Shown: positions 24,136 through 57,993 of the stretch, piece by piece | Position numbering within the stretch: the stretch's first letter is position 1 | Layout of the letters: every line of letters begins with the position of its first letter | From: Undaria pinnatifida | Lineage: Eukaryota > Sar > Phaeophyceae > Laminariales > Alariaceae | Length of the DNA: 64,000 bases | Reading direction: 5' to 3' | NCBI GenBank assembly: GCA_012845835.1 | Contig: JABAKD010000026.1 | Location: 10,344,199-10,408,198 of the forward strand | Position numbers and translations under genes: made by a program | Notes under the pieces: model-generated | Told to the model about the DNA's origin: nothing | The model's input: only the letters and a program-made list of their open reading frames with translations | The model's database searches: none

Positions 24136-24309
24136 AACCGAATTTATTATATCCCAGTTCCCGATACCGACATGCCACATTCTCTCTACCAATAAACCCT
24201 GCTTTGTCCGTTACTGCGTCTGCGGGGGGGCGTTACTTCGTCTACGAACAAAACTACCCTTTCTGCTGCTGCCAGTACATGTGCTGCCCTTCGCGATGCT
24301 GCTAACATC

Positions 24310-25640
24310 TAATCCGGCATCTTTTTTTTCTCTGCACATGTTCGGGCAGCTGCTGTCAGTTACAGAGCGGTTACTACAGTTCGCGGAGATACTGCGCTTT
24401 ACATCTATTAATAGAGCAAGTGGGGTTCAGCCCGGTATATGCGGTACTTGATGGCAAACTGTCTTTCTATTCGGCTGCGAGCGTAAAACCTTTTCTTCAG
24501 CTGGTCTTAGTATTATACTACCCTTTTAAAGGCGGTTGTTGTTGTCATCGACTGTGGACACAGGAGTAATCTTGAAGCAATCGGCACCACTGTACTCGCG
24601 ATCGTCCCCCTATAGTGCGGACGTCGGGGAAACTGTCTTGTTTGGGGGTCATACTGTCTCTTTATAGTGCGGTCGGTGGAAAAATTGCCTTGTTAGGACT
24701 CTATACTACCCATCTTGGTGCGTTTGGATTTGCCGTCACCTGCTAGCACAGCAGCGATCTACGACAATCAGCATAGTTATCGGCGCGATCGTCCCTCCTA
24801 TAGTGCGGACGGTGGCGAGACTGACTTGTTCGAGGGTTATACTACCCATCTTCGTGCGTTTGGTGTTGTCGGTACCTATGGGCACTGCAGCGGAAATGCA
24901 GCGAGCAGTGCTACTGTAGGCGCGACTTTCCCCCTATAGTGTGGTCGGTGGGGGAAACTGCGTTGTGCAGGCGTTGTTCTGACCTTGTCCTCTGGTTGGT
25001 ATATGTACAACCCTCTACTGTGCTACCCTTCCTTACACTACTCCTAGGGGAGATGCTGCCCGTTTATTTTTATGCGGCTAGCTGTACGATCCTCTACTGC
25101 GGTGCTACTCCCAATCTCCCCTACACTACTGCCAGGGCAGATACTGCCCGTTTTTGTCACGGTTGGCTGCGCGATCCTTTGCTGTCCAACCCCCCCCCTA
25201 CACCCCCGTTAGAGCAAGGGCTGCCGGATTTTCTGCGATTGCCTGCATGACCCCCTTCTGTCCTACCCACCCCTACACTACTCTTATGGTAAATGCTGCT
25301 CGTTTTGCTGACGAGGGCATGGGGTTCTTGGTGCGACCCTTGACTATGCTGCCCCCCCCTCTGGGCCTAGGGTAAATGCTTAATGTTCTGGTGCGATGCG
25401 TGGTCTTGTTGTTCGACCCTTCACTGTGCCACCCCCCTACACTGCACCTAGGTTAGATGCTGCCTGTATTGGTGCGATAAGCGTGGGCGTGTTAGGCGTC
25501 CCTCTACCGTGCTGCCCCCCTACACTGTGCATGGGAAATATATTGCCTGTTTGAGTGCGATGGGCGTGGGCCTCTTGTGCAACCCTTTACTGTGCTGCCC
25601 CTCCGCCTAAACTGCACCTTGGTTGAATGCTGCCTGTTTT
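24310..25640 (+). repeat. Leader of element A with C-rich minisatellites
   Basis: Collinear with 42860-44650. Contains several degenerate 'ctatagtgcgg.cggtgg' boxes (24610, 24665, 24800, 24935), then about four units of an 85-bp minisatellite (from about 25290; consensus 'atgctg..tgttttggtgcgatg.gtggg') ending with C runs. No convincing protein. Confidence 0.75.
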
Positions 25641-25699
25641 GACAACAAGCAACGACATGTCTGTCAGTCAGGAAGCGGGCTACTCGGGGCAGGCCGAGG

Positions 25700-26905
25700 T
25701 ATTCTACATGCCCCAACCTCGATGCCCACGAGCCAGGGAGAGCTCGCGAGATTTCTCGCCGCTCGAGACGGGAGGTATCACCGGGGGCGGGTTGCGTTGA
25801 CGAAACAGAGGACGGACACCATATCACCACCCGGACCCACAAACCATGAGGGTCGACTCGCCGATTCGCATAGAGAAGAAGACGGAACAACCTCCACCGG
25901 ACTCGGGGCTGTCTCGACGCCAGCTCTAGCCAGATCCGGGGGAGCGCCACTAGCTGCCGCTCCCCGCGCTCAACAAGACACCACCGCCGCCTCCTGGGCT
26001 GTCGGCGCTCGACAGAGCGCCACCACCGGAGGTCCGGGGACCGAGACGCCCACGCCTTTCCCTTAAAGTTGACATATCTGGCGGGGCGGGGGTGCCGGGC
26101 GCTGGACGACGCCAACCTCCGACATGAAGCACGCCGACGTGGGTTTGACGAATATATTGAGCAGGCGAAGACAGCTGTGCGGGAGGCGCCCCTGGTAGTA
26201 AAACGGGAGCAACAAGGCCTCGCCCAATTTGTTGCGCCCGCTGCGACCGGAGCTACCTCGCCCCCCTCACCCTCGACACGCCCGTAGCTTGTCGCTTCCC
26301 AGCAACCACGACAGGTGGACGACGGTTTCGACGGCAGCGTCGCGTGCATGGCCGCTGCACCGAGAGTAGATTTTTCCTCGGCCTTGGAGACCGTGGTGGT
26401 GGAAACAACCTCCGCTCTCCTTATGTTATTTAAAGGCCGGCGTCGCGGCGAGAAGACGCCATTTCAGTGGAAGCGTCCTGAGCTCACATGGGTTATACCT
26501 CTTATGAAGGACAGACGAGAACCACCTCGACCCTTGCACTCGTGAAGGCACTGCGGATGGTCTATGACGAAGCCCCCGACCCCGTCTTCTGGCCGAACCC
26601 TGAAGGAACCGTTATCGGAACGTAACCGGGGAAAACAGCGACGCAGCTACAGTCGCGACCGCGGGGACCCCCCCCGTGAGGTTGGTGGCTTCGGGGGTGG
26701 CGGAAAACGTGGTGGAGGTGGCGACAACAACAACCGCTACGGTGGTGACAACGGTGGTGGAGGCGAGGGAGCCGCGTCGGGTTCAGGCAATTTCTCAGGC
26801 CGCCGCCGTGAGGACAATTTCATTCACAACAACCAGGACGGTGGTCGCAACTCTGCCGGAGGCAACAAAGGGCGGGGGAACGGCGCAAGAGAACGTTCAG
26901 CGTAG
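25700..26905 (+). pseudogene. Gag-like region 1 of element A
   Basis: Sense frames homologous to those of element B in the same order. A start at 25723 (MPTSQGELARFLAARDG) leads into a Ser/Pro/Ala-rich stretch. The frame at 26069-26287 contains RHEARRRGFDEYIEQAKTAV, a predicted helix. The frame at 26564-26905 is an RGG/Gly-rich nucleic-acid-binding type region (RDRGDPPREVGGFGGGGKRGG). The frames are separated by small shifts. I interpret this as the N-terminal part of a structural (Gag) protein, judging by position and composition. Confidence 0.55.
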
Positions 26906-26959
26906 AAGGCTCGTCAACCTCTTTCCCGTCGCCTTCGGCCTCCAGCACTGACCACGGCG

Positions 26960-28066
26960 AGGTGATCGTGGTAGCAGGCTACACCGGTGTCGCGAGCTAT
27001 CGCGGGAAAAGCATCCGGGTGAGAGGCTTTGCACCCTCCAGTTGCGTCTGCTGATGACGTACTTCGACCGGGTCGACACGGGGGAGGGCTACACTAAGTT
27101 GCATACTTTTGGAATGTGTAATGGCACGCCTTTATCTGATTGAATTGGGAGTTTCGCATACTTGTGTCGACCGCTACGGAGAGTGATCGTGTTTGGTCTC
27201 CGGGAACGGATGTGGTGTTGGAAGGGATTCTGTTAGCCGTGAATAAGCAATTTCCCACTCTAATGCCTGCGTTGTACCCTGGTTCGACGACAACGGAACT
27301 GCCGCCATACGCCTCGTTGGAGGCGATGTGGCGGACTTTTAGTGACTAAGCGCATAATAAGACAGCTGCTGTAAACGGCGAAACATATTTTTCTGTCCCT
27401 GTTTCCTCGACGGGAGCGCGATCATCCGCCCCGTCGGGGCTCCGGCCCGCCGACCATGGGCGCGGCCAGGGCCGAGCGCCGTGCCAGTCGCTTTCGTGGC
27501 AGACGGGACCGAGCCATCATCCAAATGTCATGCCCATCGATGATTCAGCTGACCATTGGCTTGATCTCACATCGAACTGCGGTCCACTAGAAGAGCATCA
27601 GTATGCAGAAGGTTTCGCCGTTAGTGCCTCGTTCAAGATAGGCGACCCTCCGCTTTGGAGCGGTCTCCTTTTACCTCGCGCTGATGCCCAACGAGAAAAC
27701 TGGCGTCTTTGCCTGAACTGTCACGAAACAAGCCACTCCCTCATGCATTCTAGACATCATTTCCTTACTGCGAGTGTCTATTTGAACCCTGAACTTGGCC
27801 AACTTGGCGACGATGACGCATACCGACGTTGGCAAGCACGTATGGTCTGCTACCGTCGAGACGGCAAATCGTCTCACCCGATCAACCACAAGAAATATCG
27901 TCGCCACCATTCAGGTCAATCGCAAAAATACCACCAGGATCAGAGCCAGAAAAACTGTCACAACGATTACACGTACACGTCGGATCACCGTGGTGGTATA
28001 TCGCTCTCGCCCGCCTTTTCTTCCCCCCGCTTCTTCTCCTGGAATGCTCTTTGGAGCTGCCCATAA
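26960..28066 (+). pseudogene. Gag-like region 2 of element A with degenerate zinc knuckle
   Basis: The 27140-27349 frame (STATESDRVWSPGTDVVLEG, YASLEAMWRTFSD) matches 46278-46628 of element B. The 27530-28066 frame (178 residues) contains CLNCHETSHSLMHSRH at about 27710-27757. This is a CCHC zinc knuckle (C-x2-C-x4-H-x4-C) whose last Cys position reads Ser. It continues with LGDDDAYRRWQARM. Zinc knuckles of this type in Gag package element RNA. Confidence 0.7.
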
Positions 28067-29040
28067 CCCGGGCGGAAGTCCTAACGCGCAACACCCTGGC
28101 ACATTCCGTACCGGAATGGACAGCTCGACGACGGTGCTCTTGGTGACAACGTTTTTGGTTTCAGAAGATACTCGTGTACCAGTTGCTAGCCTGTCCAATA
28201 ACGCAGCACAAATTGCCTCTGTCAAGAACCCACGGGCTCCTACGCCGTCTGCGGACGATTCTCACGTCGTAGTACGAGCGGCGGGAACTAGCGCTTTAGG
28301 CGTGGTTCATCCGAGCGAGGTAATTGTTTTCGACGGCGAGAACACGCGCTTTCAGCGTCAATCCCCCCGGTTGTAGTCTGAGGTCAACGACGAGAACCGC
28401 GGCTCCAGCGTCGTTTCCTTCAGCCACGGCATAAACTCGGCAATGGGGGTACGCGCTCGAAACGCCACCCCCAATAACCATGGCACGGGATCCTCCACAT
28501 TGCGCGTTTCCCCACGGGCATGCGCCACGCAGCAATATAGACGCGGTGACGGCACGTCGCCTTTTAACCCAAATGTGTCTATCCTCCCCTCTCCTTGACC
28601 AGGCGGTGGCAGTCGGTTTGAGATGTGGGAAGGCCAACACTAAAGCATCGAGATCTTTCGCGAGGCTCGATCCGGTGTTTGCTTGCGATAGCAGCGGGCG
28701 CTCTTTCCATTGTACCACCAAGGAGGAGTCGACAAAATTAGCTACCTAGTCTCCATTCTCCAAGAACCGGAACAGAAATGAGCCTCCTCGGGTAAAAACA
28801 GTATTTCTACGTGCCCGAGCCCCGCTCCACAAGACCCCCACATTATCTATGGGCCGTTCTTCGTTTTCAAGCACGATAACCCACGTACTTCGGGCTACTT
28901 CTGCCCCAGTGGTACAAGAAAAAAATCCGACACTGCACTACGGTCCTGTGGTGACGCCATGGCCTCCAGCCTGATCAGCTGGACGCAATTCCCGTAAGAT
29001 TATGGAAGAATCGCGCCGCTCGTCAAGACGAAACAGGACA
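28067..29040 (+). pseudogene. Conserved central region of element A, function unknown
   Basis: Sense-strand readings such as DGENTRFQRQSPRL (28335) and INSAMGVRARNA (28433) have collinear counterparts in element B (DGQNGCFQRRSSRSW, INAAMGVRAPNA at 47600-47730). Interrupted by several stops. A protease or RT might be expected here, but I could not recognise D-S/T-G or Y-x-D-D motifs. Confidence 0.45.
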
Positions 29041-29044
29041 GAGC

Positions 29045-29640
29045 CCCTGTCCCTTCGGGCGCAGTTTGAGCAGTTTCTTACGCCAAAGAGCAAAGAGACC
29101 AGGACGCGATAAACCGTGGGTCCGGACTCAATTCGTTCTCCCGAGGCCTGGTGATCCTGAGGAGAACATCATAGGCCCAACGTGCCGAGGTCTGGGGTAC
29201 CCAGAGGGGGGCGTGGCAGGCCCGTATGCCTAACGAAGTTACCGAGGGGTTGGCACCGCCGGTGTTGGACGTTTTTTCGGGTGCTGTGAGGGAGGCTTCT
29301 TTCGAACTTCCGCCAGCGAGGGTGGATGACCCCAGGCGAGAAACCGCTGATTCGGACTCGTATCTTGCTCCCGAGGCCTGGTGTTTCCCGCGAGGGGACA
29401 CTACAGGCCCAAAAGGCCGAACGCTGATGTCCCCAAAAGGGGAGAATGCAGACCCCAATTTTCAACGAGGCTGCCAACGGGTTAGCGCCGTCGGTTGTTG
29501 CCACTTTTCGGGCGCAATTAGAGTGTATTCTTGCATTTTTCCGCCAACGAGCGAAGACGATCAGTGGCGAGGAACCGCGGGTTTGGATTTGCGTCGTGCT
29601 CCCGAGGCCTGATGTTCCTGGACGGGGATATTGCAGGCTC
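29045..29640 (+). repeat. Coding tandem repeat before NADAR, three units of about 215 bp (element A)
   Basis: Units of about 70 codons with the shared pattern NEA/NEV..GLAP.V..F, then FPPA/FRQRA, a DD/R-rich segment, and APEAW or LPRP. Starts near 29045, 29226 and 29446. Element B has the equivalent three units at 55507-56110. The third unit runs in the same frame directly into the NADAR domain, so the repeats form the N-terminal part of the same polypeptide. Confidence 0.75.
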
Positions 29641-29685
29641 AAATTCCGACACGGCGTTTGCCCTTCTCTCGAACACTCCACAGAC

Positions 29686-30130
29686 AAAGTGTTGTTGTTC
29701 TGGCGGCCCCCAACCTGTCTTTCGCCGTGGTCCCGTTCGTCGTTTGTCGTGGACGACGTGCCATATTCTCGCTGGGAGCAGTATATGATGGCCGAAAATA
29801 CCAGACTTTTCCAAGACCATCGAGCAGTGGAGCACATCATGTCGTCGCCTAGTTCAAGAACATCCAAACGCATCCATCGAGGCGTGCGCAGCTTTGACTC
29901 CAGTGTTGCGGACAGGGGGAAGCAAAATGCCGTCTTTTCTGGCACCTACGCCCAATTCAGCCATCATCCAGCCATAAAAAAAACACCTTTCGAGCTCTGA
30001 AAACCAGCGTCTGGCTGAGCTCAGCCCTCTGGACCCAGTGTGGGGCATTGGCCTCCGGGAGGATGATCCGAGGGTCAATAAACCGCGCTAGAGAAGAGGA
30101 AAATATATTTTGGTGAGGCTATTTTTTCTT
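29686..30130 (+). pseudogene. NADAR (YbiA-like) domain inside element A
   Basis: The open frame 29446-30000 ends in a sequence with the hallmark order of the NADAR fold: VLLFWRPP and SSFVVDDVPYS (strand and lead-in), YSRWEQYMMAENTRLF with the conserved Glu at 29776, IMSSPSSRTSKRIHRGVRSF (the K-x-x-x-R block), and KQNAVFSGTYAQFSHHPAI. After a one-base shift, most simply in the A8 run at about 29976-29983, the neighbouring frame continues RLAELSPLDPVWGIGLREDD with the W-G-I-G-L box at 30041-30055. Family knowledge: NADAR proteins act on ADP-ribose/NAD-related N-glycosidic bonds; characterised members remove ADP-ribose from guanine bases, others act on riboflavin intermediates. Substrate here is unknown. 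A TAG near 30088 shows decay of the last helix. Confidence 0.85.
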
Positions 30131-32228
30131 TCGCGAACCTATTCGCGACAGCGAGACGCGATCGGCGCACCCGGCCTCCCCTAGTCGGTTGCGTACCTGC
30201 ACTGCGAATGCAATAACTAAGCAATCGCGTCCGCGTCGCGGCCGGGCCGTTAACAGCGGCAAGCGCTCGGAAAGCTTCAATTTCGGAGTTCCCGACAAAT
30301 ATCTCGGGCGCGTTGGTCAACTAAAAGACGTGAATGTATGAGAATGGCTTCTGGCGTCGGTCCCGACCTTGGACTGACCCAGTCTACGATAGGAGGGTCC
30401 TTTTTTGGTCCATGGTTTGCATTGGCTCGGCGTCACGCGGGCAAGTGCCCCCTCTGTTCCTCTGCGGTCTTACGTGTTCTTGGTTTGAGCAAACTTGACA
30501 AAAAACAGTCCACAATCAAATGGTTATGCTGGCTGCCCCAAAACATCACCTAACGCATTCTTGTCCGTGAGGTACTGAGTACCTAGCACGAGTGGTTCAA
30601 GCCCGGTAGTAAAAATTTGGGGGGTCTCCCCTTCCTTAGCCATGTCGGCTGTCAGAACACGGCCCCTGTATTGTCGGGGGTACTGTGATGCTCGACGTTT
30701 CGTTACCTACAAAAATTGCGTAGATCGATCGAGCAACGCTCGACTCGGAAAGGCACTGGACGCTTCTAGATTTAGGAACCGGCTGTGGTGTTTGGGCTCC
30801 TAAACCCCTCCGAGGGTGCTGTGGGGAACAAAGTTCCGCATATCCTCCTGTCATAAGGCTCAAGAGATCATTCGCAAAGTGGGGACCCTCAATACACGAG
30901 TCCAGCGGTAGCTTCAACTCGTCGCCGTGTTCGATTGCGCACTCGACTACAGCAAAGGCAGCGTCAACGGTGTCGCCAATTTTTTGCCACACGTTTACCA
31001 GAGCTTGCTACGGAGTACGACTACAGTGGCTTGACCAGTTTCGACCCCGTGGGGCTGACAAGCCCCAAACGCGTTCGAGATTGAGGTACCTACCTCGTAC
31101 GGACATGCGGGCTGCGTGCTCCCTCCTCGCCGATCCCAGGGGTCAGTTAAAGGTGAACTCGTGCCCGGCACCGAACGCACTACTATGCGTTGACTCGTTT
31201 CCCTCACCGAACGTACTGGCATGGGTAGACTCGTGCCCCTAACTCAAAGCTGTCTTGGGTGGGCTCGTGCCCCGCACTGAACATGCTACCTTAGGTGGGC
31301 TCCCTCTTAAGTCTACCACTTTTCACGATTTCGCACACACGAGCCGCGTATAAGGATCGACGGCCTTCTTGCTTCCCCGGGGAGATTCGTCGCTTGTGTT
31401 TCTGCCTTGGTCGCCACTACGGAAGGCTGTACTGGCAGCGGGACGATATCTCCTGCCATTGACACCGTTTTCGATTCGAGTTTGGCCATGCCCATCGAGG
31501 GTGGGATCATCTCCGCAGAAGCCCTGGCTGCAGAGATGCCCATTTTACAGCCGACTCCTCTATCAAGGAGTCGCACACAGGAGACCGACCCCGCCGCGAC
31601 CATCGGTTCGACTGTGTCTCTCTCTGCCTTGCTTTTCACTCTAGCTCCTCCGTCGTCGACGACGCGCCGACGAACAGCGTTAGCAACCGGTAATTTGCCC
31701 TTCTGTAAATTATGGCTTCGGGTCCGGCGGGGCTCCTCGGCCATCCTCCAGACGAGTTACAACCCCGCCGCGTGTCCAACGGCCGCCTTTGGCTTACCCG
31801 CTGCCGTGACCCTTGCTCTTGCCGACTAGCTGGTTCGCACGGTGCCACTTCCGTCCGACAGCGACCACGCAGCGCCTATAAAACTCGTCTGTTACGGCTC
31901 ACGCCTTCTCCTGGTGACACGCCGACTGCACATATACATGGTCGGACGCCCTCGGCGACGCTCCTGAATCTCGGTTTGCCGATTCCGTCGCTCGTTATAG
32001 GCATGCCGACTGGGAGTGAGGGCAGCACGCTGAGGCGACGTGCCACGCCATGATGAAGTACATCTCTACCGGCCGGACATCAGTTCTGCCGCCCGACCTT
32101 TTGGCGTACTACTCCTCGCACAAGTGTCCATTCCTCTAAGACATCCAGGAGCTGGTGGGTAAAGGTCGGCTACATACAACCGACGACGATATCGTCCTAC
32201 TCGTCCGAAACCCGACACTGCTGGCAAA
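30131..32228 (+). pseudogene. Region downstream of NADAR in element A (pol-linked, unknown)
   Basis: Sense readings GGTVMLDVSLPTKIA...RATLDSERHW (about 30680) and the open frame 31407-31829 (IEGGIISAEALAAEMPILQPTPLSRS) match element B at 56850-56950 and 57640-57730. The last part (LTPSPGDTPTAH, then RLHTTDDDIVLLVRNPTLL near 32170-32225) corresponds to the lead-in of the integrase in element B. The frame is broken many times. Minus-strand frames over this interval (30636-30992) are also conserved in B but lack domain signals. Confidence 0.5.
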
Positions 32229-33255
32229 CCCCCTACTCAGTGCCGGGCCAGGGTTAGGGTAAAATGCCGCCATCTGAGGTGCAGGACTGTCTCGTTTCTG
32301 TCGTTGTTCAATTTCACCCTGCCGACGCCCTCCTCAATCAAGAACCGGGGGGCGACCAGGGTAACCTATTAGCGCGTAACGTGGTACAGGGCTATGTGAG
32401 GGCCTGTGAGTCATCATTTTTTTGTGTGTCGTATTTGGTCTACTACTTGTTTCGGTTAAACACTTTGCCCCTTCGCGGGCCTGTAAGTGATGCACCCTTC
32501 CATCTCGGGTTTTTGTCGTCTCTTCATCTAACCCCCGCCACGCTGTCGGCCCGCGGAAGGTTTTTGGCACGATTTCTTCCTTGTATCAGCGCCTTTTTTC
32601 TCCTCGATATCGACAAGGATCGACTCGACATAGTATATATATTTTGGTCATTTTGCCGTAGAGTCTTTCCTCCCACCCCCTCGCCACACCGCCGGTATGC
32701 GACAGGTTCTAGAGCCTTTTCTGCCCCCCCTCCCGGCACACCGGCCGTAGGCGAGCAGATTTTTTATGGGCGGCTTTTGCCTTGTTGTAGGGTCTGCGTT
32801 TTTTTCAACTACTTTTCCTCGCGTGTTCCTGGGTCCATAACCAGACCGTTAGAGGTGTGGCGGTGGGTTTCGAGCAGTCGCATCTTCGACTCATGGTCTA
32901 CTTCGAAGAACCGGATTTTTTCTGAATCTTCCATGTTTCTGCATATGCTGCTCATCAGGGTGAGCTGGCGCTTAGATACGGCCTTAAAAGGCCTACAAAT
33001 ATCCTGTTTGAGATATTTTGGATGGTTTCGTACGATAAGATTGGCGTTTAATATTCGAGATAGTCAGGAAATAGATCGGCGGCACGTGCCTCCGATCTCA
33101 GAAGCCATCTGAATCTCTGGTGGATATATTAAAGCTACGTCTCTCTTAAAGGCTAAGAAAGTGAGTATTCTCCGAGGACCTGCTCAGTTGGCAAAACTGC
33201 AGGGGACACTCTGTGTCCCCGCCCTATACTATTACGCAACTAACCAACTCGCCTC
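32229..33255 (+). repeat. 3' terminal region of element A (probable LTR)
   Basis: Collinear with 60485-61480, and its last 250 bases with 41115-41370. Shared landmarks: CAGTGCCGGGCCAGGGTT, 'ctgtaagtg', 'cgccggtatgcg', 'gcacgtgcctccgatctcag' and 'ggacctgctca.ttggcaa/gac'. Three copies of the distal part around two elements support an LTR, but a left copy for A was not found. A 282-codon frame spans this segment (32264-33112) and is not conserved in element B. Confidence 0.65.
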
Positions 33256-41105: not shown

Positions 41106-41114
41106 CATGTTAAG

Positions 41115-41370
41115 ATACGGGCTCGAACGGCCTATCATTATCCGTATTGAGATATTTCGGGCGGGGTTCGTATGATAAGGTTTTATGTTCGGGAAATTCA
41201 GGGAATAAATCGAAAGCACGTGCCTCCGATCTCAAAAGCCTTCCGGTGCTCTGGTGAAATGTAATAAAGCTACGTCTCTGCGAAGGCTAAGAAAGTGAGG
41301 ACTCTCCGAGGACCTGCTCAATTGGCAGACCTGCAGGGGACACTCTGTGTCCGCATCCTACACCCCTCCA
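41115..41370 (+). repeat. Left terminal-repeat fragment of element B (truncated LTR)
   Basis: Matches the last 250 bases of the right terminal regions of B (61225-61480) and A (32975-33255), with 'gcacgtgcctccgatctcaaaagcc', 'aaagctacgtctctgcgaaggctaagaaagtgag' and 'ggacctgctcaattggcaga'. The outer 750 bases or so are missing and replaced by the tandem array. Confidence 0.75.
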
Positions 41371-42540
41371 ATATGGCGTCGTCTTTGGCTTGACTTGCTA
41401 GTGTGGCAGCATTCCTCCAATCTCTCCTATAGCTGTATTCGTGGAGGTTTTGCTTTTGATTTCCATCGAGCCCACAACCAATGTTCCTTCACGGGTAGCT
41501 TTTCAATAAAGAGAGCGCCCTTCCTCCTCCAACGGCGGCCACAACAGCAGCGAGATGACAGGGGGCTCTCCTGTTGGTCGCCGAGCACGTACCACACGGA
41601 CGACACCTTCCGACTACGTGCGGACTACACTGCTCTTCGGAGCACACTCTTCTCCTCAGCTTATTGGTAGCATCAGTTCCCCGCCCATGCGCGAACTGCA
41701 ACCTATGGACCACTCGGCAGCGGAGCTGCCCAAGCCCCACCCTTCAGACTCGTTCGCTCTGCACTTAGCCAGCATGTTGCACAGCACATCTCCGCGACCT
41801 GCCGGCACAAGCCCCAAAATCGCCCGTCGACCTTCACTCTATTTTTCGGCGCTTCGGGGCTGAGGCGTATGCACGACGCGTCACGGACAAGCATACATTA
41901 ATCAATCCTTTCAGGGAACAGCGACGAGGCCCTGGATTGTTGAGAGAGCCCATCGGCCTTCGTACTCCTTTGCTGGCGGAGCCAAATCGACCTTCGCGGG
42001 ACCGGCTTGGCCTACGGGCATCGCGGTGTGGGAGCTCAGGTCGGGGCTCCTTCCTTGTAGTCCTCCTCGAGAGGAACAGGCAGCGCTCGTGAAATGCTCG
42101 GGCGTTGTCGTTGACGATTTTTTCCAGTACACGTGTTATCGTATAGATCTCAGTATACGCATCGATCTGTCCTTCTCGACGGACAAACTGTGCCTGCCTT
42201 TGTTCTGAAAATAGTACAGCTACCAACTTGTCGAAACCCGGACCCCTCCTCGATCTTCGCTATCAACAGCGATCCACTGCGTAACTTAGCTTCAACCACC
42301 ACCATGTTCGCAGGGCTACCAACGAAAGCAGTACAGCACGGATTTTCTGCTGTAAAAGTCACTACACAGCAGCCGGGCCGCCTACTTTGCCCCCGCCCAT
42401 TTAACACCTAGCTCACGCCTTCAATGGCCAGCGTCAAGAGCTACAATGCTGCAGCTTTGACGCGTCCCGCTGCTGTGCGAGTGCTCCTTGCAAGTTCGAT
42501 TCGAGAGATTTTTCATCTTGGCCCTCCCGTGACAAGAACT
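41371..42540 (+). other. Element B leader, no recognised protein
   Basis: Contains a plus frame 41555-41863 (PMRELQPMDHSAAELPKPHP) and overlapping minus frames, none with a domain. No counterpart seen in element A, which starts further in. Confidence 0.4.
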
Positions 42541-42562
42541 TAAACTTAGTGCCAAGTTTATG

Positions 42563-42672
42563 TACTGGCTTTTTTTGGCAAAAAACTGTCGGCGTGTGCG
42601 ATGCCCTATTTCCCGCTATATACTGGCTTTTTTTGGCAAAAAACTGTCGGCGTGTGCGATGCCCTATTTCCC
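42563..42672. repeat. Two-copy 58-bp tandem repeat, essentially identical
   Basis: TACTGGCTTTTTTTGGCAAA...CCCTATTTCCC occurs at 42563 and 42621 with no difference seen over 52 bases, unlike the degenerate repeats around it. Each has a T7-GGC-A6 inverted motif able to form a short hairpin. Confidence 0.9.
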
Positions 42673-42699
42673 ACTTTTCATGGGTACGCGAGTGTTAAT

Positions 42700-44650
42700 A
42701 GCACTTTTAGTATAGGCGCAGCCGTGATAGTGCGGCACACTGCACTACCGTCGACGTAACCGCCTCTTTATAGTGCGGCCGGTGTGGATACGGATTTGTT
42801 CAAGCTGATATGTTGTCCCTCCACTGACTGTTAGTACTGTGCTGTACTTCATGATGATGCTAGGGTCTACGCTGCCATTCAGTTTGTTCTGCACATGTTA
42901 GCGCAGCTATTGCCCGTTACAGAGTGTATACTACAGTTCGCGGAGATACTGCGCTTTACAGCTATTAATCGTGCAAGAGGGGATCAGCCCGTTTGATGCT
43001 TCACTTGGGGGAAAACAGCCTTTCTACCCGGCTGCGGATGTACACACCTTTTCTACAGCTGGTCTTGGTGGTATGCTGTCTTTTTTAAGGCGGTTGGTGT
43101 TGTCGTCACCCGCGGACACAGGAGAAATATTGCATCAATCATCACTACTATAGGCCCGACCGTCCCTCTATAGTGCGGTCGGCGGGGGAACTGCCTTGCT
43201 CGGGGGTTATACTGCCGATGTTCGTACGGCTGGTATTGTCGGTACCTATGGGCAGATCAACGATAATGCAGGGAGAAGCACTACTGTAGGCGCGACCGTC
43301 CCCCAATAGTGCCGTCGGTGAGAAACCTACTTTGTTCGGGCGTTGCACTGACCTTGTCCTCTGGTTGGTATATGTGCAACCCTCTTACGTGCTACCTCCC
43401 CATACACTACTGTTGGGACCGATGCTGCCCGTTTTTTGTACGGTTGGCTGCGCAATCCTCTACTGTGCTTTCCCCCCCTGCACTACTGTTACGGTTGATG
43501 TTGCCCGTTTTGTATACAGTTAGCTGTGCGATCCTGTACTGTGCTAGGGCAGATACTGCCCGTTTTTTTTACGGTTGGCGGCGCGATCCTCTACTGTCCG
43601 ACCCTTCGCTATACTACTGTTGGGGCAGGTGCTGCCCGATTTTTTCATGGGTGGCTGCGCTACCCTCTACTGGGCTACCCCCCTGTACACTACTGTTGGG
43701 GCTGATACTGCCCGTTTTTAGGCTGCTAGCTGTGCGATCCTCCATTGTGCTACCCCCACAACACAGCACCTAGGGTTAATGCTGAATGTTTTGGTTCGAT
43801 GCGTGGACTTATTGTGCAACCATTCACTGCTCTACCCCCCCCCTACGCTGGTCCAAGGGTAAATGCTGCATATTTTGGTGCGATGGGTGGGCTTCTTGTG
43901 CACTCCTTCACTGTGCTACCCCCCTCCCCTACACAGCAGTTACGGAATATGCTGCATATTTTGGTGCGATGGGTGGGCTTCTTTTGCAACCATTCACTGC
44001 TCTACCCCCCCCCTACACAGCACCTAGGGTAAATGCTGCATGTTTTGGTGCGATGGGTGGGCCTCTTGTGCAACCCTTCACTGTGATACCCCCTCCCTAC
44101 ACAGCACGCAGGATACATGCTGCTTGGTCTGGTGCGATAGGTGGGCGTTTTGTGCAACCATTCATTGTGCTACCCCCCCCCCCCCCTGCACAGCACCTAG
44201 GGTAAATGCTGCATGTTTTGGTGCGATGGGTGGGCTTCTCGTGCAACCCTTCATTGTGGTACCCACACCCTCCCTACCCAGCACCTACGGTATATGCTGC
44301 ATGTTTCGGTGCGATGGGTGCGCTTCTTGTGCAACCAATCACTGTGCTACCCCCCTCCTCTATACAGTACCCCCCCCCCTACACAGCACCAAGGGTAAAT
44401 GCTGCCCGTTTCGGTGCAATGAGCGTCTGCGTGTTGACGACCCTTTACTGTGTTTTCCCGCTAAACTGCACCTAGAGTAAATGCTCCCTGTTTCGGTGCA
44501 ATGAGCGTAGGCGTATTGGGCGACGTATTGCTGTGTTACCCTCCCGCCTGGGTTAAACGCCGCCTGTTTTAGTGCCATGGGTGCAGACGTACCTTTCCTG
44601 CGTTGCACTCCCTGCACTGCGTTGAGGGTCAGTGCTTCCTATGTTTGGCT
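42700..44650 (+). repeat. Leader of element B with an expanded 85-bp minisatellite
   Basis: 'tatagtgcggtcggcgggg' boxes at 42770, 43170 and 43305, then 74-bp style units ('atgctgcccgtttttt.tacggttggctgcgc') from 43425, then about ten units of about 85 bp from 43775 to 44640 (consensus aatgctgcatgttttggtgc ... gatgggtgggcttcttgtgc ... C run ... acacagcacctagggt). Element A has only about four. Plus frames here repeat the peptide MLHVLVRWVGF. Confidence 0.85.
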
Positions 44651-45017
44651 CATTTAACTGCAGTTCGTGCAGGCGTTCGTTTCTCGTATACCCAACTGTC
44701 AGTCTGGGCGCTCCTCTATTGTTGCGTATTTGTTCGATAGTACACTTCCTACCGCTGTCTGCTCGTTGTCATGGCTACTACCATCAATGGTGGTGGACGG
44801 AGTCGAGGCCGATATCTTGCTGCTTGCTGGCAAACAGATATTACCGCTACTTGCAGACGTATGCCTCCAAAACTTCTTTAGACGTCGTTGCCATCCGCCA
44901 CCTTCCTCCACACGTTCCGCTTCCGCTGCTCTCCCCCCCAAAACAAAACAACTTGTCTACCATTGAGGAAGCGGTCTATTCGGGGCAGGCTGAGGTCTTG
45001 TACGCGCCCCAACCGGG

Positions 45018-46148
45018 ATGCCCACGAGACAGGGAGAGCTCGCTCGAGATCCCGCGACTGGAGACAGGGGGAACCACCAGGGGTGGGTTTTGGTAACGAG
45101 ACAGAAGACGGAGCACCATACCATCACCCGGACCCATCAACCAAGAGGGTCGAGTCGCCCGTTCGCGCAGAGAAGAAGACGGACCAATCTCCACCGGAGT
45201 CGGGGGTGTATCGACGCCAGATCTCGCCTGCCCCGGACACGCGCCACCAGCTGCCCCCTCTCCGCGGTCGACTGGGCACCATCGCCGCCAACTGGACTCT
45301 CCGCGCTCGACAAAGCGCCGCCCGTAGAGCTGACCGGGGCCCCCATGCCGGCGCCTCGGGCTTGGCATATGCGGCGGCGGGCCCAGCGGGCGTTTGACGA
45401 CGACAACCCAACGATTCTCCGGCGTGAAGCCCGCCGACGTCGGTTTGACAAAGATATCGAGCAGGCGATGGCCGCTGCGCGAGACGCGTCCCTGGTAGCG
45501 AAGAGGGCGTAACACGCCCTCGCCCAATGAGGTACGTCGGCTGCGGCAGAAGCTACCGCGGCTGCCTCGGCTTCTACGCGCCCGCAGGGTGTCGCATCCT
45601 AGCGATCGAGACCCGGGGACGACGCCTTTTTCAAGGGCAGCGTCGCGTGTATGGCATCTGCACCGAGGGTAGAGTTATCCCCAGCGCTGGCGACCGCGGT
45701 CGTGGACACGGCATTTGCCGTCCTCACGTCAGATAGGCCGGCGTCGCGGGCGACGGACGCCCTTTCAGTGAAAGTGGCGTGGACTCTTGCATGGATTGTA
45801 CGTCCTATGACGGACAGGCGAGAGCCACCCCGACCCTTGCCCTCGTCAAGGCCCTACTGATGGCCCATGACGAGGCCCCCGACCCCGTTATCTGACCGAA
45901 CCCCGGAAGATATCTTTTCGGAACGCAACCGGGGGAAACAGCGACGAAGGAACAGCTGCGACGGTGAGGACCGCACCCGTGGGGGTGGCGGCAAAAAGGG
46001 TGGGGTTAGCGACCACCACCACCGCCGCGGGGGTGACATCGGTGGTGGAGGCGCGCGAAGCGCGATGGGTGCCGGTGGTGGCTCAGGGCGCCGACGATGG
46101 GGCAACGTTTGTTGCAACAACCGGAGCAGTGTCTGGCGGAGGCAGTAG
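45018..46148 (+). pseudogene. Gag-like region 1 of element B
   Basis: Homologous to 25700-26905 of element A. The 164-residue frame from 45018 begins MPTRQGELARDPATG and contains REARRRRFDKDIEQAMAAAR. Next comes 45651-45860 (ASAPRVELSPALATAVVDTA) and the Gly/Arg-rich frame 45867-46148 (RTRGGGGKKGGVSD). Interrupted by stops. Interpreted as the structural protein N-terminus by position and composition. Confidence 0.55.
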
Positions 46149-46277
46149 AGGGCGTAGGAATGGCGCTAGAGGACGTTGGGCGTGGGACGTCTCGTCAACC
46201 TTCTCCCGATCGTCTTTGACCTCGACCACGGACCACGGCGACGTGACCGTGGTAGCAGGGAATAGATGTGAAGAGCC

Positions 46278-47440
46278 ATGGCAGGAGTAGCATCTGGGCC
46301 TGAGCCTTTCACCCTTCTGTTGCGTCCGCTGATGAAGAACTTCGACGGGGTTGACACGGACGACAGCTACACTGAGCTTCATACCATTGGAATGTGTAAC
46401 GGCACGTATTTTTCTGGTTTCAGTCGGGAGTTTCTGGTACTTTTGCCGACCGCTACGGGGAGTGAGCGTGTTTTGTCTCCCGGGACAGATGTGGTGTTGC
46501 AGGTGGTTCGGGTGGGGGCGAATGAGCAATTTCCACCTCCCATGCCTGCGGCGTCCCCTGGTTCAAAGACAACGGACCCCCGGCCATACGCCTCGTTGGA
46601 TGCTATATGGCGGGCTTTTAGTAACTAAGCGCATAATAAGACACCTGCATTCAACGGCAAATCATTTGTTTCGCTGCATGTTTCTTCGATGGGAGCGCAG
46701 GCATCCGATTCCGTCGGGACCCTGGCCCGCCAATCATGGGCGCGGCCAGGGTCGAGTGCCGTCCTAGTCGCTTTCATGGCAGCGGGATCGAGCCATCATC
46801 CAACTGTCATACCCATCGATGATTAATTATACCCTGGACTTGACTACACATCGAACTGCTGGCCACTAGTAGAGCATCATTATGCAGAAGGTTTCGCCGT
46901 TAGTGCTTCGTTTTTGACAGACGACCCTCCTCATATATCGGCCTTCTTTCACGTCGCGCTGATGCCCTCCGACATAACTGGGGGCGTTGCCTCAATTGCC
47001 ACGGAAACAAGCATTCTGTAGGTATCATTCTATTACTGCGAGTAGCTGCTTGAACCCTGATCTTGGCCAGCTTGGCGACGATGACGCACACTGACCTTGA
47101 CAAACACGCATGGTCTGCTACCGCCGAGACAATAAATTTCATCGCTCGAACAACAAGAAATACCGTCGCCATCTTTCAGGTCAATCGCAAAGGTACCACC
47201 AGGAACAGAGCGATGCAAACTGTCACAACAATATCACACACACGTCGGATTCCGATGGTGGTATCTCGCGCTCGCCCGCCTCTTCCTCCCCCGCTCCTGC
47301 TCCCCGAATGTGGTCTGGAATCGCGCACAACCTGGGCGAAAATGCTCGCGCGCGCCAGCCTGGCACATTCCGTACCGGCGATCGACAGCTCGACGGCGTT
47401 GCGGCACCGTCGACAATACTGTCGGGGACATCTCTTTTGT
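46278..47440 (+). pseudogene. Gag-like region 2 of element B with degenerate zinc knuckle
   Basis: The frame 46278-46628 (FDGVDTDDSYTELHTIGMCN, ERVLSPGTDVVLQVVRVGAN, YASLDAIWRAFSN) is better preserved than in A. About 350 bases downstream RCLNCHGNKHS is the start of the zinc knuckle, with the rest frameshifted. This is followed by LASLATMTHTDLDKH matching A's 27795 region. Confidence 0.6.
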
Positions 47441-48362
47441 TTTGAAAGGATGCTCGTGTTCTTGTTGCTAGCCTGTCTAAACACGCCGCACAAATTGCCT
47501 CTATCAAGAGCCCACGGGCTCCTAGGCCGTCTGCGGACATTTTGTACCGGCGTTGGGAACTAGCACTTCGAGCGTGGTTGCCACCAGCCAGGCAATATGT
47601 ATCGACGGTCAAAACGGGTGCTTCCAGCGGCGTTCCTCTCGGTCATGGTCTGAGTTCGGGGAAGGGAACCGCGCTTTCAGCGCCGTTTACCTCAGCGGCG
47701 GCATAAACGCGGCCATGGGGGTACGCGCTCCGAACGCCGTCCTCATCAACGACGGCACGGGAGCCGGCGCTTTGCGTGCTCCCGCCCGGGCACGCATCGC
47801 GCAGCAATATAGCTGCAGTGACGGCGCGTCGCCGTTTTACGCAAACTTGATCATCCCCATATCTCCTTGACCCGGCGGTGGCGGTCGGTTTGGGGTGTGG
47901 GGCTGCCATTTCATCTGACCACGAGGCGACGGTCATTTTGAGGTGTCGGAAGGCCAACACCAAAACACCAAGATCTTTCGCGGGGCTCGATTCGGTGTTT
48001 ACTCGGGATAGCAGCAGGCGCCCTGTTCTTTATTGTTCCATGAAGAAGGATTCGACTAGATTAGCTTCCTCGTTTCCCTTTTCCAAGAGGCCAAACGGAA
48101 AAGAGCCTCCTCGGGTAAAACCATTGTTCCCACCTGCCCGAGTTCCGTTCCAGGAGACGCCCGCAGGGTCTACGGGTCCTGCGTCGTCTTTTAGCACTCT
48201 AACCAGGGTGCTTCAGGCTACGTCTGCCTCAGTGGTACGGGAAGAACATCAGACACTGCGCAACTGGCCAGTGGTGTGACGCCATGGCCTCCAGCCTGAT
48301 CAGCTGGACGCTATTCCCGAAAAAATTACGGAAGAATCGGGCCTCTCGTCAAGCAGCAACAG
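47441..48362 (+). pseudogene. Conserved central region of element B, function unknown
   Basis: Collinear with 28067-29040 of A (open frame 47553-47870 contains INAAMGVRAPNAVLINDGTG). Ends at the Copia insertion point within CAACAGCTCAG, which lines up with CAACAGGACAG... at 29030-29045 in A. Confidence 0.5.
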
Positions 48363-48367
48363 CTCAG
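48363..48367. other. Target-site duplication CTCAG, left
   Basis: CTCAG directly precedes the left Copia LTR and is repeated directly after the right LTR at 55502-55506. Confidence 0.93.
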
Positions 48368-48799
48368 TGTTGAAAGTATGAACCTTGGATTCAAATCTAA
48401 GTTAATGCGCAGTCTATTCGCACGAATAAGATATGCAGTTGAATCTTAAGTTGAATTTTACGTTGAATCTTCGGTGTAACCTAGATGTAAACGTAGATTT
48501 GAGTATGTTAAGGTTGTCCCGTTGTCCCGGTATTCTACCGTACTATGGGCATTGTTGCGTGATGATCAGGTGGTGATGAACCCCACCATGGTCACTCTCC
48601 CAACTCTCCCAACTCTCCTTCTCTTCCTTCTTTCTCTGCTTTCTTCTTCTTCTCTTTTTGGCCTCAAGCGCCCTTTCCAAACTATCTTTTTTCTTTCTTA
48701 TCACAAGTGATCTTAACAGACACTTCAGTGCCACCTCTGCATCTCTTCGCATAGAAGACAGAGCCTTCACACAACCATTGTGTTCACAGGCTATTCACA
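48368..48799 (+). repeat. 5' LTR of the Copia element
   Basis: Begins TGTTGAAAGTATGAACC, ends GGCTATTCACA. Contains two copies of 'cccaactctc', a pyrimidine-rich tract, and 'ttgaatcttaagttgaat' internal repeats (48431-48470). Confidence 0.95.
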
Positions 48800-49061
48800 G
48801 GTTATGAGCCTTCGATCTTCGATATAAACATCGATCGGCACCAAGCGACTTCTCATTGAAGTTTGTCGCATCTTACCGGGAAGTTTGAGAGAAACCTCCA
48901 TTAAGCCGGCTACAGCATCAGTTACAGCTACAGCATCAGCTACAGCATCAGCATCAGCATCAGCTACAGCATCAGCATCAGCATCAGCTACAGCATCAGC
49001 ATCAGCATCAGCATCAGCTACAGCATCAGCATCAGCATCAGCGATCAGCATCAGCATCACC
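48800..49061 (+). repeat. Copia leader with (ACAGCATCAGCATCAGC)n microsatellite
   Basis: After the LTR comes GGTTATGAGCC, the place of the primer-binding site, loosely like the internal initiator-Met type used by Copia elements. From 48910 to 49060 there is a run of CATCAG/CTACAG triplet-pair repeats. It is in frame with Gag and would add Thr/Ala/Ser repeats if translation began at 48885, but the better start is ATG 49062 in a good context (ATCACCATGGG). Confidence 0.75.
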
Positions 49062-49628
49062 ATGGGAGAGTCCACGAAAGCAGGTGGTGCGGTAGACAAG
49101 CTCGTTAGAGCTCTCAACGGCAAATTTAATGGGCTTAAGCTCGACGTATGGAAACGCACGGCTCAGTCCGTGATAAGTATGCGTCATGCCGGGATCTCTG
49201 ATATCCTGGAAGGGCGACCTTGCCCCGAGCCCGAACTAGTTAGTCCTCGTCCATCTTCTAGAAGAAGTAGGCCTTGACGAGCTGTAACTCGCAGCCAGGC
49301 CGCTGACGAAACGAACATTCAGTCCGGGGAAACACCCCAGGCTGATACGGCAGAAAATGTACAGCCGGACGCAGGGGGTACTCCCGTGGTCACGGCGCAT
49401 CTGCCACCATCATCTTCAGGATATTCTACACTCCCAGCCGCAACATCAGTTTTATGGGCCACGGATGACAACATCTCGAATTTGGAAGACATCAAGCACT
49501 GGCACCGCGACAATCGTCTTCTGTTCGATTTCTTGTTCCTGAGTACATAGGGAGCGGCGGCCAGCTTTCTTCTACAATTCAAGCCCAAACGAGGTGAACT
49601 TGCGAATGGAAAAGCTGCTTGGGATGGT
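49062..49628 (+). pseudogene. Copia Gag, N-terminal part (two premature stops)
   Basis: From ATG 49062 the frame reads KLVRALNGKFNGLKLDVWKR, a typical Copia Gag start. It is stopped by TGA at 49275-49277 and by TAG at 49548-49550. The same frame continues unshifted into the long downstream frame (NISNLEDIKHWHRDNRLLFD before the second stop, AWDGMVRKYQN after it). Both are single-codon nonsense changes in an otherwise continuous frame. Confidence 0.85.
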
Positions 49629-51566: not shown

Positions 51567-53035
51567 TTAACCGATTACCGCACGCGGCAATCGGCGGCGA
51601 CACACCCTACCATCGTATGTTCGGGAAGCATGCAGACCTCTCATTTTTGAGGATTATCGGCACTCGGGCATTTGTGCACGTTGAAGGGTACACCACCAAG
51701 CTTCAACCAAAGGCTTGGGAAGGTGTTCTCGTCGGCTACGACAGCGACAGACCTACCTTCCGCGTGTATGATCGCTACACGGGAAGAATTTCAAGCTCGC
51801 GCAACGTCTCCTTAATCGAAGAGCCGCCTACTGTTCTACCAACAGCAGACTCGAGGGGGCAAGAAGAACCTGAAGTCCCTGATTTCGATTTGGAGCCAGG
51901 CTCGGATTTTATGGACCACTATCAGAGCATCAAGCATGGTATCTCATCGCTAGAAACTAGCGACACCGACGCAACCGGCAACAAGCCGTTTCACATGAGG
52001 CTGCGCTTATCCACTTCTCAAGCGAAAGCGCGTCAGCAGGCACTTCAATGCCTAAATTCCCCGAAACAGCAGTTCGAGGCTGTCTCGCAGTATACTGGGG
52101 CTGTCGGCATGGATAAAATAAATCATCCGGCTTCTACTTCGGTACCCAACACGTACGCGCAAGCCATGGCCTCACCACAGGAAGAAGAATGGGAAGCAGC
52201 TATGCGTAAGGAGCTCAAAAGTCTCGATGAGCACGAGGTCGCCAATTTAATTCCATTCACCAAGGTTCCTCCAGGCTGCTCCATCATTGGAATGCGGTGG
52301 GTATTTCGAGTTAAAACAGACGGACGTTTTAAAGCAAGGCTCGTGGTACAAGGTTGGGCTCAACAGCATGGACTGGATTGCTTCACTACTTTCGCTCCTG
52401 TTTGTCGTATTGAAAGTCAGCGTCTTCTGCTGGCTATAGCGGCGTCAAGGGATTGGCGAGTTGCGGCCATGTACGCACAAACTGCATTTCTCAACGGTAA
52501 ACTTGAAGAGGACGTCTACACCATACAAGCACCAGGCTTTGAAACGATAGACGAGAGAACCAATCGACCGCTGGTAATGAAACTGCGCAAAAGCTGATAT
52601 GGACTTCTCCAATCACCAAGCATTTGGAACAGCACCATTGACAAGGACTTGCGTAAAATGGTGTTCACGCCGACAGCATCTGATTCCTGCGTATACACAA
52701 AGGGAAGTGGGAACACATACATCATGCTAACTCTCTTCGTCGACGACCTACTCATCACTGGACCATCAAATGCAAGCATGGCCGAAGTTCGACGTGAGCT
52801 TATGGAAAAGTTCGCCATGACTGATCTCGGGGATGTGTCTCAAATTCTGGGCATTGAAGTTAAGCGCGACAAGGCAGCCGGAACGATCGAACTCAGTCAA
52901 GGACAGTACACACTTTCGGTACTCAAGCGTTTCAACATGAGTGACTGCAACCCGGTACACGTACCCGGAATAGGAAAGGTACTATGCGCACAGCCGGAAG
53001 AAAGCGTACTTCTAAACGATGGAGGCAATGACTAA
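51533..53035 (+). pseudogene. Copia integrase C-terminus and reverse transcriptase (one stop)
   Basis: Continues the polyprotein in a second frame. It has the integrase C-terminal region (GVLVGYDSDRPTFRVYDRYT), then RT with EEEWEAAMRKELKSLDEHEV, GCSIIGMRWVFRVKTDG, KARLVVQGWAQQHGLDCFTT and the motif A segment AMYAQTAFLNG, where the usual Asp-x-x-x-Ala-Phe has Tyr-Ala-Gln. A TGA at 52595-52597 replaces a Leu-like codon in the K-S-L-Y-G-L motif. After it the same frame has the catalytic LFVDDLLI at about 52737. The frame ends at 53035 through a frameshift. Confidence 0.9.
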
Positions 53036-55501: not shown

Positions 55502-55506
55502 CTCAG
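55502..55506. other. Target-site duplication CTCAG, right
   Basis: Second copy of the CTCAG found at 48363-48367; the sequence then resumes element B ('agcccctgtcccttcg'), which matches A at 29042. Confidence 0.93.
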
Positions 55507-56110: not shown

Positions 56111-56139
56111 TTTGACCCTTTTTCGGAATACGCCACATA

Positions 56140-57990: not shown

Positions 57991-57993
57991 ACG

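What the first reader, a model, noticed from the sequence alone, without database searches (positions are those of the whole stretch)
29686..30130. A NADAR (ADP-ribose-metabolism) domain encoded inside a Gypsy-like retroelement (copy A)
The sense strand of element A encodes the ordered NADAR hallmarks: F-V-V-D-D-V-P-Y-S, E-Q-Y-M-M-A, K-R-x-x-R-G-V, L-A-E-x-S-P-x-D-P-V-W-G-I-G-L-R, in two frames separated by a one-base shift at an A8 run. It lies between Gag-like zinc-knuckle sequence and the integrase lead-in. Known NADAR enzymes remove ADP-ribose from guanine or process related N-glycosides. A mobile element carrying one could use it to reverse host ADP-ribosylation of its nucleic acid or to tune NAD-linked host defence. 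The functional idea is inference; the domain itself is visible.
Basis: partly seen in the sequence, partly recalled or inferred. Interest (0 to 1): 0.88.

Follow-up and report, generated by a model that had tools for sequence, protein, structure and literature searches.

The report
ADP-ribose enzyme domain in kelp retrotransposon
A jumping gene present in many copies in what is almost certainly a farmed brown seaweed carries, inside its polymerase protein, a domain related to enzymes that strip ADP-ribose off DNA and RNA bases; the copy read in this window is a dead relic, copies with open reading frames exist elsewhere in the same genome, and a close cousin has been published from another brown alga.

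Summary
The first NADAR segment of copy A matches Pfam NADAR at 1.7e-15, the frame-shifted second at 9.7e-05; copy B has the domain too. The genome is almost certainly Undaria pinnatifida: one contig has exactly that assembly's published N50 length. There, NADAR lies in one open frame with reverse transcriptase, RNase H and integrase, behind a gag frame and TGA stop; two copies have identical LTR pairs and 4-bp target duplications. All 20 sampled hits among ranks 44-145 are followed by pol sequence. So NADAR belongs to a Ty3/Gypsy element. Copy A is dead: frameshift, two active-site residues replaced, protease and RT deleted. The same 2,082-bp deletion occurs in copy B and three distant loci, so the RT-less form spread. 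Copies with open frames keep known NADAR active-site residues. Dinatale et al. 2025 already described NADAR at the start of Pol in an Ectocarpus Gypsy lineage; this is the same clade. New here: kelp copies, the amplified RT-less derivative, residue conservation, and an unrelated Gypsy with NADAR. Enzymatic function is inferred.

The parts
24274..33229 (+). Element copy A: relic of the NADAR-Gypsy family (5' UTR minisatellite, gag, NADAR, then directly the RNase H tail, integrase lead-in and 3' LTR); no 5' LTR recognised
   Evidence: blastn to copy B about 75% identity over the larger blocks and blast to other copies; 5' LTR search negative
27131..28115 (+). Gag C-terminal part of copy A, with zinc-knuckle region
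   Evidence: tblastn with another copy's gag: 64.7% over 303 aa, 4e-113
29701..29997 (+). NADAR domain of copy A, first segment (E43 equivalent kept; K50 equivalent is N, W89 equivalent is A)
   Evidence: Pfam PF08719 1.7e-15; translation
29978..30088 (+). NADAR domain of copy A, second segment in a shifted frame (E125, D130 and WGIG equivalents kept)
   Evidence: Pfam PF08719 9.7e-05
30649..30740 (+). Deletion junction of copy A: sequence before the protease joined to sequence inside RNase H; protease, RT and most of RNase H absent
   Evidence: blastn coordinates on another copy, alignment of five loci, register and frame
30715..32220 (+). RNase H tail and integrase lead-in of copy A
   Evidence: tblastn with pol residues 1348-1814
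32974..33223 (+). 3' LTR of copy A
   Evidence: 79% identical to the LTR of a young copy
41108..61481 (+). Element copy B, bounded by LTRs (41108-41370 and 61220-61481, 78.8% identical over 264 columns) and the 4-bp duplication CCCA
48368..55501 (+). Copia element nested in copy B (LTRs 96.8% identical, 5-bp duplication CTCAG); not part of the NADAR element
56185..56620 (+). NADAR domain of copy B, broken by stops and a frame change; D130 equivalent is R, W89 equivalent is G
   Evidence: Pfam PF08719 6e-07 (56251-56469) and 1.9e-05 (56432-56620), each below the cut-off on its own; frames
56829..56960 (+). Deletion junction of copy B, same breakpoint as in copy A
56899..59445 (+). RNase H tail, integrase lead-in and integrase of copy B
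   Evidence: tblastn, 80% over the integrase part

Best explanation
Copies A and B are old relics of a Ty3/Gypsy LTR retrotransposon family of a brown alga (most likely Undaria pinnatifida) whose Pol begins with a YbiA-type NADAR domain. Shown by sequence: order LTR - gag - TGA - about 400 residues of linker - NADAR - protease - RT - RNase H - long spacer - integrase - LTR. Shown: A and B belong to a derivative that lost protease and RT and is present at five separate loci. Inferred: Pol is made by reading through the TGA; NADAR enters the virus-like particle as part of Gag-Pol and may be cut free by the element's protease. There it hydrolyses ADP-ribose from guanine bases of the element's RNA or cDNA, protecting the template from host or environmental ADP-ribosyltransferases, much as the dUTPase domain of some retroelements is thought to keep uracil out of cDNA. 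Inferred: RT-less copies moved by borrowing the proteins of full copies. Identity of domain and element: about 0.97. The guanine-ADP-ribose mechanism: about 0.4.
For: Domain and element. A TGA follows the same gag-end motif in 10 of 10 copies inspected, from two clades about 54% identical in pol; in 8 of 10 it is in frame with the long pol frame. LTR pairs of 267 and 269 bp, identical within each copy, with 4-bp duplications, in two copies. 20 of 20 sampled further hits carry pol sequence downstream, 14 of 20 with RT. Long-term constraint: between the two clades NADAR has pN 0.374 against saturated pS 0.772. Equivalents of E43, K50, K75, R79, W89, E125, D130 and W133 are kept in 17 or 18 of 18 genome copies read; these residues contact ADP-ribose or matter for NADAR function (PMC11543638, section 12 read). 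A predicted NADAR of this group (mean pLDDT 73) matches the P. nicotianae NADAR-ADP-ribose structure 8bau (5.2e-10) and E. coli YbiA 2b3w (8.3e-06), and no other solved chain at E 0.001 or below. Characterised NADARs remove guanine ADP-ribose from DNA and from RNA (PMC11125620 and PMC11833690, passages). RT-less junction shared by A, B, L045, L049 and L050.
Against: No activity, expression or particle data. NADAR evolves faster than RT (pN 0.374 against 0.146 between clades). Between two closer subfamilies the test is weak: 5 synonymous and 7 non-synonymous changes, dN/dS 0.39. In 2 of 10 copies the TGA is followed by a frame change. No host guanine ADP-ribosyltransferase was identified; the one search for it got no answer. 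E. coli YbiA hydrolyses guanine ADP-ribose but its recorded role is in riboflavin metabolism, so residues do not fix the physiological substrate. Of 25 close pol relatives, 3 have room for NADAR and show none.
Confidence: 0.5

Rival explanations
1. NADAR acts on free NAD- or ADP-ribose-derived small molecules, or on damaged nucleotides, in the cell, blunting an NAD-linked host defence or altering metabolism rather than repairing the element's own nucleic acid.
For: [quoted passage not shown] YbiA acts in riboflavin metabolism (PMC11543638, passages).
Against: Fusion inside Pol predicts delivery to the particle with the nucleic acid rather than to the cytosol; small amounts would be made if Pol needs stop readthrough (inference).
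Confidence: 0.22
2. NADAR has become a nucleic-acid-binding or RNA-processing module without hydrolase activity, for example in packaging or priming.
For: Dinatale et al. suggest a role in processing the RNA intermediate; a paper on an essential C. elegans trans-splicing protein names a NADAR domain many times (PMC9303266, title, abstract start and term counts in the search listing only).
Against: All eight ADP-ribose contact or functional residues checked are kept in 17 or 18 of 18 copies, more than a mere binding fold would need.
Confidence: 0.2
3. Captured passenger: the domain was picked up once and persists by copying, with no function for the element.
For: A and B are themselves decayed; NADAR evolves faster than RT.
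Against: Open and residue-conserved in both clades with saturated synonymous sites and present in relatives from other sources; present again in an unrelated Gypsy.
Confidence: 0.12
4. A host NADAR gene that was merely flanked by element pieces.
For: Stand-alone NADAR proteins exist in brown algae, e.g. Pylaiella and Ectocarpus.
Against: NADAR in one open frame with RT and integrase; 20 of 20 sampled further hits followed by pol.
Confidence: 0.01

Closest known systems
NADAR-bearing Gypsy lineage of Ectocarpus, e.g. Gypsy-12_Ec32 (Dinatale et al. 2025, PMC12477816; abstract, section 5 part 1 and passages read)
   Same: [quoted passage not shown] Ectocarpus proteins with NADAR (P0144, P0146) are among the 25 close pol relatives of the kelp copies.
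   Different: Here another species with at least 150 NADAR hits above the cut-off, open frames up to 2,473 aa, an RT-less derivative shared by at least five loci, and two sub-clades whose NADARs are only about 48% identical. The consensus sequences of the paper were not compared directly.
P0003, a NADAR-bearing Gypsy Pol of unnamed source
   Same: NADAR first in Pol, then protease, RT, RNase H, integrase; NADAR 52% identical.
   Different: RT region only 33% identical and placed elsewhere in the RT tree, so an independent capture or transfer.
Tx1 LINE ORF1 proteins of Crassostrea gigas with NADAR (reported in PMC12477816)
   Same: Retrotransposon carrying a NADAR.
   Different: LINE, ORF1; known here only from the paper.
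DarT-associated, phage and stand-alone NADAR hydrolases (8bau, E. coli C7 NADAR, YbiA)
   Same: Fold and ADP-ribose-binding residues.
   Different: Stand-alone or operon-encoded, not part of a polymerase polyprotein.
dUTPase-bearing LTR retroelements (bdelloid Juno, Vesta, TelKA; PMC5408684, passages)
   Same: An accessory enzyme domain inserted in Pol near protease.
   Different: Different enzyme and position (between protease and RT); an analogy, not kinship. The uracil-exclusion role is recalled and from the abstract start of PMC4261571 in a listing.

Membership tests
Ty3/Gypsy LTR retrotransposon (Metaviridae) | Pol order protease - RT - RNase H - integrase | tested here: met
   RVT_1, RT_RNaseH, H2C2, rve in order in two open frames (rve 31 bits, just under its cut-off of 32.6); protease only weak by Pfam in one (0.2), LLDTGS motif read by eye. 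Copies A and B themselves lack protease and RT
Ty3/Gypsy LTR retrotransposon (Metaviridae) | Two LTRs, TG..CA ends, short target duplication | tested here: met
   Two young copies of one clade (duplications TATA and CTAC) and copy B (CCCA). For the C25 copy of the second clade only a 92-bp repeat without duplication; for the C34 copy no near-identical pair in the stretches fetched
Ty3/Gypsy LTR retrotransposon (Metaviridae) | gag with CCHC zinc knuckle upstream of pol | tested here: met
   Upstream frame of 898-1,019 aa open in 7 of 14 copies, C-X2-C-X4-H-X4-C read by eye in one; Pfam finds no gag or knuckle family
NADAR superfamily, YbiA type | Significant profile match | tested here: met
   4.1e-50 and 2.3e-48 in open-frame copies; 1.7e-15 in copy A
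NADAR superfamily, YbiA type | Glutamate at the E125 position and other active-site residues | tested here: met
   18 of 18 genome copies read have E125; E43 and K50 17 of 18 each. Copies A and B have lost some
NADAR superfamily, YbiA type | ADP-ribosyl hydrolase or N-glycosidase activity | not testable with these tools
   needs purified protein
NADAR-Gypsy lineage of brown algae (Dinatale et al. 2025) | NADAR at N-terminus of Pol | tested here: met
NADAR-Gypsy lineage of brown algae (Dinatale et al. 2025) | Common RT ancestry with the Ectocarpus members | tested here: met
   RT-RNase H tree of 97 sequences (FastTree, midpoint root): clade of 28 tips, support 1.0, 16 of 28 with NADAR, without P0003; the printed tree was cut, so not all 28 names were seen. 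In the smaller tree of 17 NADAR bearers the Ectocarpus proteins P0144 and P0146 lie among the kelp copies' relatives
NADAR-Gypsy lineage of brown algae (Dinatale et al. 2025) | C-terminal chromodomain | tested here: inconclusive
   Chromodomain-like stretch read by eye (recalled motif); Pfam and PDB sequence searches give none
Non-autonomous LTR derivative | Same internal deletion in several separate insertions | tested here: met
   Same breakpoint in A, B, L045, L049, L050

The most novel reading that the evidence does not exclude
Brown algae mark invading retroelement nucleic acid by ADP-ribosylating guanines, and Gypsy elements have at least twice captured a hydrolase that erases the mark inside their particles; RT-less derivatives that keep gag and NADAR spread by sharing this protection in trans.
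Probability: 0.15. Interest if true: 0.9.

Novelty: new member of a known kind. Interest (0 to 1): 0.5.

Why it matters
NADARs are known mainly as antitoxins against guanine-ADP-ribosylating toxins, from phages, and from positive-strand RNA virus polyproteins. A conserved, apparently repeatedly captured NADAR in retrotransposon Pol makes it testable whether eukaryotes use base ADP-ribosylation against mobile elements. The kelp genome supplies natural open-frame domains to assay, decayed ones as negative controls, and an RT-less derivative family for comparison.

Tried and rejected
Host gene flanked by chance: rejected.

Chance motif match: rejected by Pfam scores for both halves and for copy B.

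Frame of the RT-less deletion: my first measurement (2,081 bp, not a multiple of three) assumed the wrong register and is withdrawn. In register with the copies it is 2,082 bp, 694 codons, in frame. But A, B, L045 and L050 also share a frame change about 33 codons after the junction, so a NADAR-to-integrase fusion protein is not supported; gag plus NADAR with a short tail is what the derivative could have encoded. L049 has lost 8 further bases at the junction.

NADAR tree to decide between bacterial and host origin: not informative; the nearest named bacterial relatives are Nannocystis (58-59%), the named algal ones 55-60%. Only the best 120 of 1,212 matches were listed, and 122 of 141 sequences were kept after dropping gappy and identical rows.

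In one search, 4 of 22 genome loci (L002, L003, L007, L008) were not read because they are held in the opposite orientation; several of the 18 read are identical. The database column for E43 has 52 gaps in 123 rows, so only the genome-copy count is used for that residue.

Viral-contig search with P0003: no relative. Genome-wide count of the RT-less junction: not obtained. The 20 loci were chosen by me among ranks 44 to 145 of 150, 19 with frames under 280 aa and one of 777; RT-less copies may be over-represented, and all were selected for having NADAR. One search's tblastn part returned nothing, which I put down to an invalid option; it was repeated. Its blastn junction result stands.

The relatives search scored only the 7,985 candidates sharing most words.

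Not in print: searches of the held library. Among the papers they listed (20 of 104, 6 of 6, 15 of 34, 12 of 232, 12 of 1,372, 8 of 22) only PMC12477816 was seen to report NADAR in an LTR retrotransposon; the rest of the matches, subscription journals and preprints were not seen.

Full report
Observation. The ordered NADAR hallmarks in copy A are real. The segment window:29428-29997 matches Pfam NADAR at 1.7e-15 over profile positions 2-109, and window:29978-30088, in another frame, matches positions 109-139 at 9.7e-05. They are two consecutive parts of one domain, broken near the A8 run. Copy B, 26.5 kb downstream, holds the same domain in pieces (6e-07 and 1.9e-05).

Host. The window is part of a 511,146,479-base assembly of 68 contigs. 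Contig C34 is 16,510,065 bases long, exactly the scaffold N50 given for Undaria pinnatifida, whose scaffolds total 511.28 Mb (PMC7058681, passages; that paper counts 114 scaffolds, so some small ones are not held).

Relatives in the same genome. A NADAR profile search scored 150 of 1,454 candidates; all 150 exceed the curated cut-off, the best with 176.7 bits. Of these 150, 20 lie in open frames of at least 2,300 aa, 40 of at least 1,000 and 52 of at least 700; 4 of the 52 have stops inside the NADAR match, none of the 20. In two open frames, 54% identical to each other from NADAR onward, Pfam finds NADAR (4.1e-50, 2.3e-48), RT, RNase H and the two integrase domains, in this order (the integrase core at 31 bits is just under its cut-off). 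A gag frame of 898-1,019 aa precedes pol in 7 of 14 copies fetched; in the others it is shorter or broken. In 10 of 10 copies inspected the same gag-end motif is followed by TGA; in 8 of 10 the long pol frame continues in frame, in 2 (L016, L018) a frame change follows. Two young copies have LTRs of 267 and 269 bp, identical within each copy (the one mismatch of the C18 match lies outside the LTR), with 4-bp duplications; one spans 15.5 kb. For the C25 copy of the second clade only a 92-bp repeat without duplication was found, and for the C34 copy no near-identical LTR pair in the stretches fetched.

Is NADAR part of the element elsewhere too? I took 20 further hits, ranks 44 to 145 of 150, 19 of them with frames under 280 aa, and read 2.5 kb downstream of NADAR. 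All 20 carry pol sequence there; 14 of 20 include RT, 6 of 20 do not. A separate host NADAR gene was not identified among the loci read, but not all hits were read, and stand-alone algal NADAR proteins exist.

What A and B are. Against an open-frame copy, both lack the stretch from just before the protease motif into RNase H. In register this is 2,082 bp, 694 codons. The same breakpoint occurs at three further loci on C33, C38 and C28. Five separate loci with one breakpoint mean that a copy which had lost its RT was itself multiplied, presumably with proteins of full copies (inference). The deletion keeps the frame, but A, B, L045 and L050 share a frame change about 33 codons later, so this derivative could encode gag and NADAR but not integrase in one protein. 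Three other RT-less loci (L037, L040, L047) have different deletions. Copy B is bounded by LTRs 78.8% identical and by the duplication CCCA, and is interrupted by a younger Copia element with 96.8% identical LTRs and duplication CTCAG. A and B are old and dead: A has the frameshift, N for the catalytic lysine and A for W89; B has stops, R for D130 and G for W89.

Active site. In NADAR structures and mutants the residues E43, K50, K75, R79, W89, E125, D130 and W133 (P. nicotianae numbering) contact ADP-ribose or matter for activity or rescue (PMC11543638 section 12). The alignment to 8bau places element residues on those of them that it covers well (a constant offset of two residues, read by me). 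In 18 of 22 genome loci (four not read because of orientation) E43 and K50 are kept in 17 each and the other six in 18; many of these copies are near-identical, so this is two clades rather than 18 independent witnesses. A predicted structure of a database relative (P0007, mean pLDDT 73) matches 8bau and YbiA and no other solved chain at E 0.001 or below.

Constraint. Between the two clades synonymous sites are saturated (pS 0.772 in NADAR) while pN is 0.374, so most amino-acid changes were removed; RT is tighter (0.146). Between two closer subfamilies NADAR has 5 synonymous and 7 non-synonymous differences, dN/dS 0.39, against 0.14 for RT; alone this is weak.

Wider distribution. Of 93 pol relatives found with the protease-RT-RNase H part, 25 are close (51-72% identical). 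Of these 25, 13 hold a full NADAR, 1 a partial one, 8 begin too far downstream to show it, and 3 have room for it but no match; 0 of the 68 distant Gypsy proteins has one. In an RT tree of 97 sequences a clade of 28 tips with support 1.0 holds 16 NADAR bearers, the kelp copies among them. P0003, a complete Gypsy Pol of unnamed source, also starts with NADAR (52% identical), but its RT region is only 33% identical and lies outside that clade. This points to a second capture.

Prior knowledge. Dinatale et al. 2025 (PMC12477816; [quoted passage not shown] they suggest RNA processing. The arrangement is thus known. Characterised NADARs remove ADP-ribose from guanine in DNA and RNA (PMC11125620, PMC11833690, passages), which both fit a retroelement.

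Mechanism. The best-supported reading is an enzyme carried into the particle at the head of Pol, analogous to the dUTPase domains of other LTR elements (PMC5408684, passages), that repairs guanine ADP-ribose in the element's RNA or cDNA. The domain, its place and its conserved residues are shown; readthrough, packaging, activity, substrate and benefit are inferred.

Noticed in passing
window 48368-55501: Copia element with 96.8% identical LTRs and CTCAG duplication, nested in copy B; carries a (CAGCAT)n tract near 48913-49063.
   Followed up: partly
window 5286-7532, minus strand: Relic of another Gypsy pol (RT, RNase H and integrase fragments) 25-33% identical to the NADAR element's pol.
   Followed up: no
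window 43746-44359 and 25333-25527; L011 and L012 1-1000: An approximately 84-bp minisatellite lies upstream of gag in copies A and B and in young copies; the arrays of A and B differ in length.
   Followed up: no
L015 NADAR against L011 NADAR: The second kelp clade's NADAR groups with P0003's NADAR (0.908), while its RT groups, weakly (0.216), with the first kelp clade: fast evolution or domain replacement.
   Followed up: partly
L023 2341-3096: The C-terminus of Pol has a chromodomain-like stretch and a second aromatic-rich, Tudor-like stretch, by eye only; Pfam finds nothing.
   Followed up: partly
P0056, P0065 (brown algal proteins): Stand-alone algal NADAR proteins with a Cys/His-rich N-terminus, about 60% identical to the element domain.
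   Followed up: no
P0004: 1,501-aa protein with a NADAR domain and no retroelement domain by Pfam.
   Followed up: no
L037, L040, L047: RT-less, NADAR-retaining copies with deletions other than the A/B one.
   Followed up: no
window 30819 and 57000 region; L045, L050: A frame change about 33 codons after the deletion junction is shared by A, B, L045 and L050, a second mark of common descent of the RT-less derivative.
   Followed up: partly
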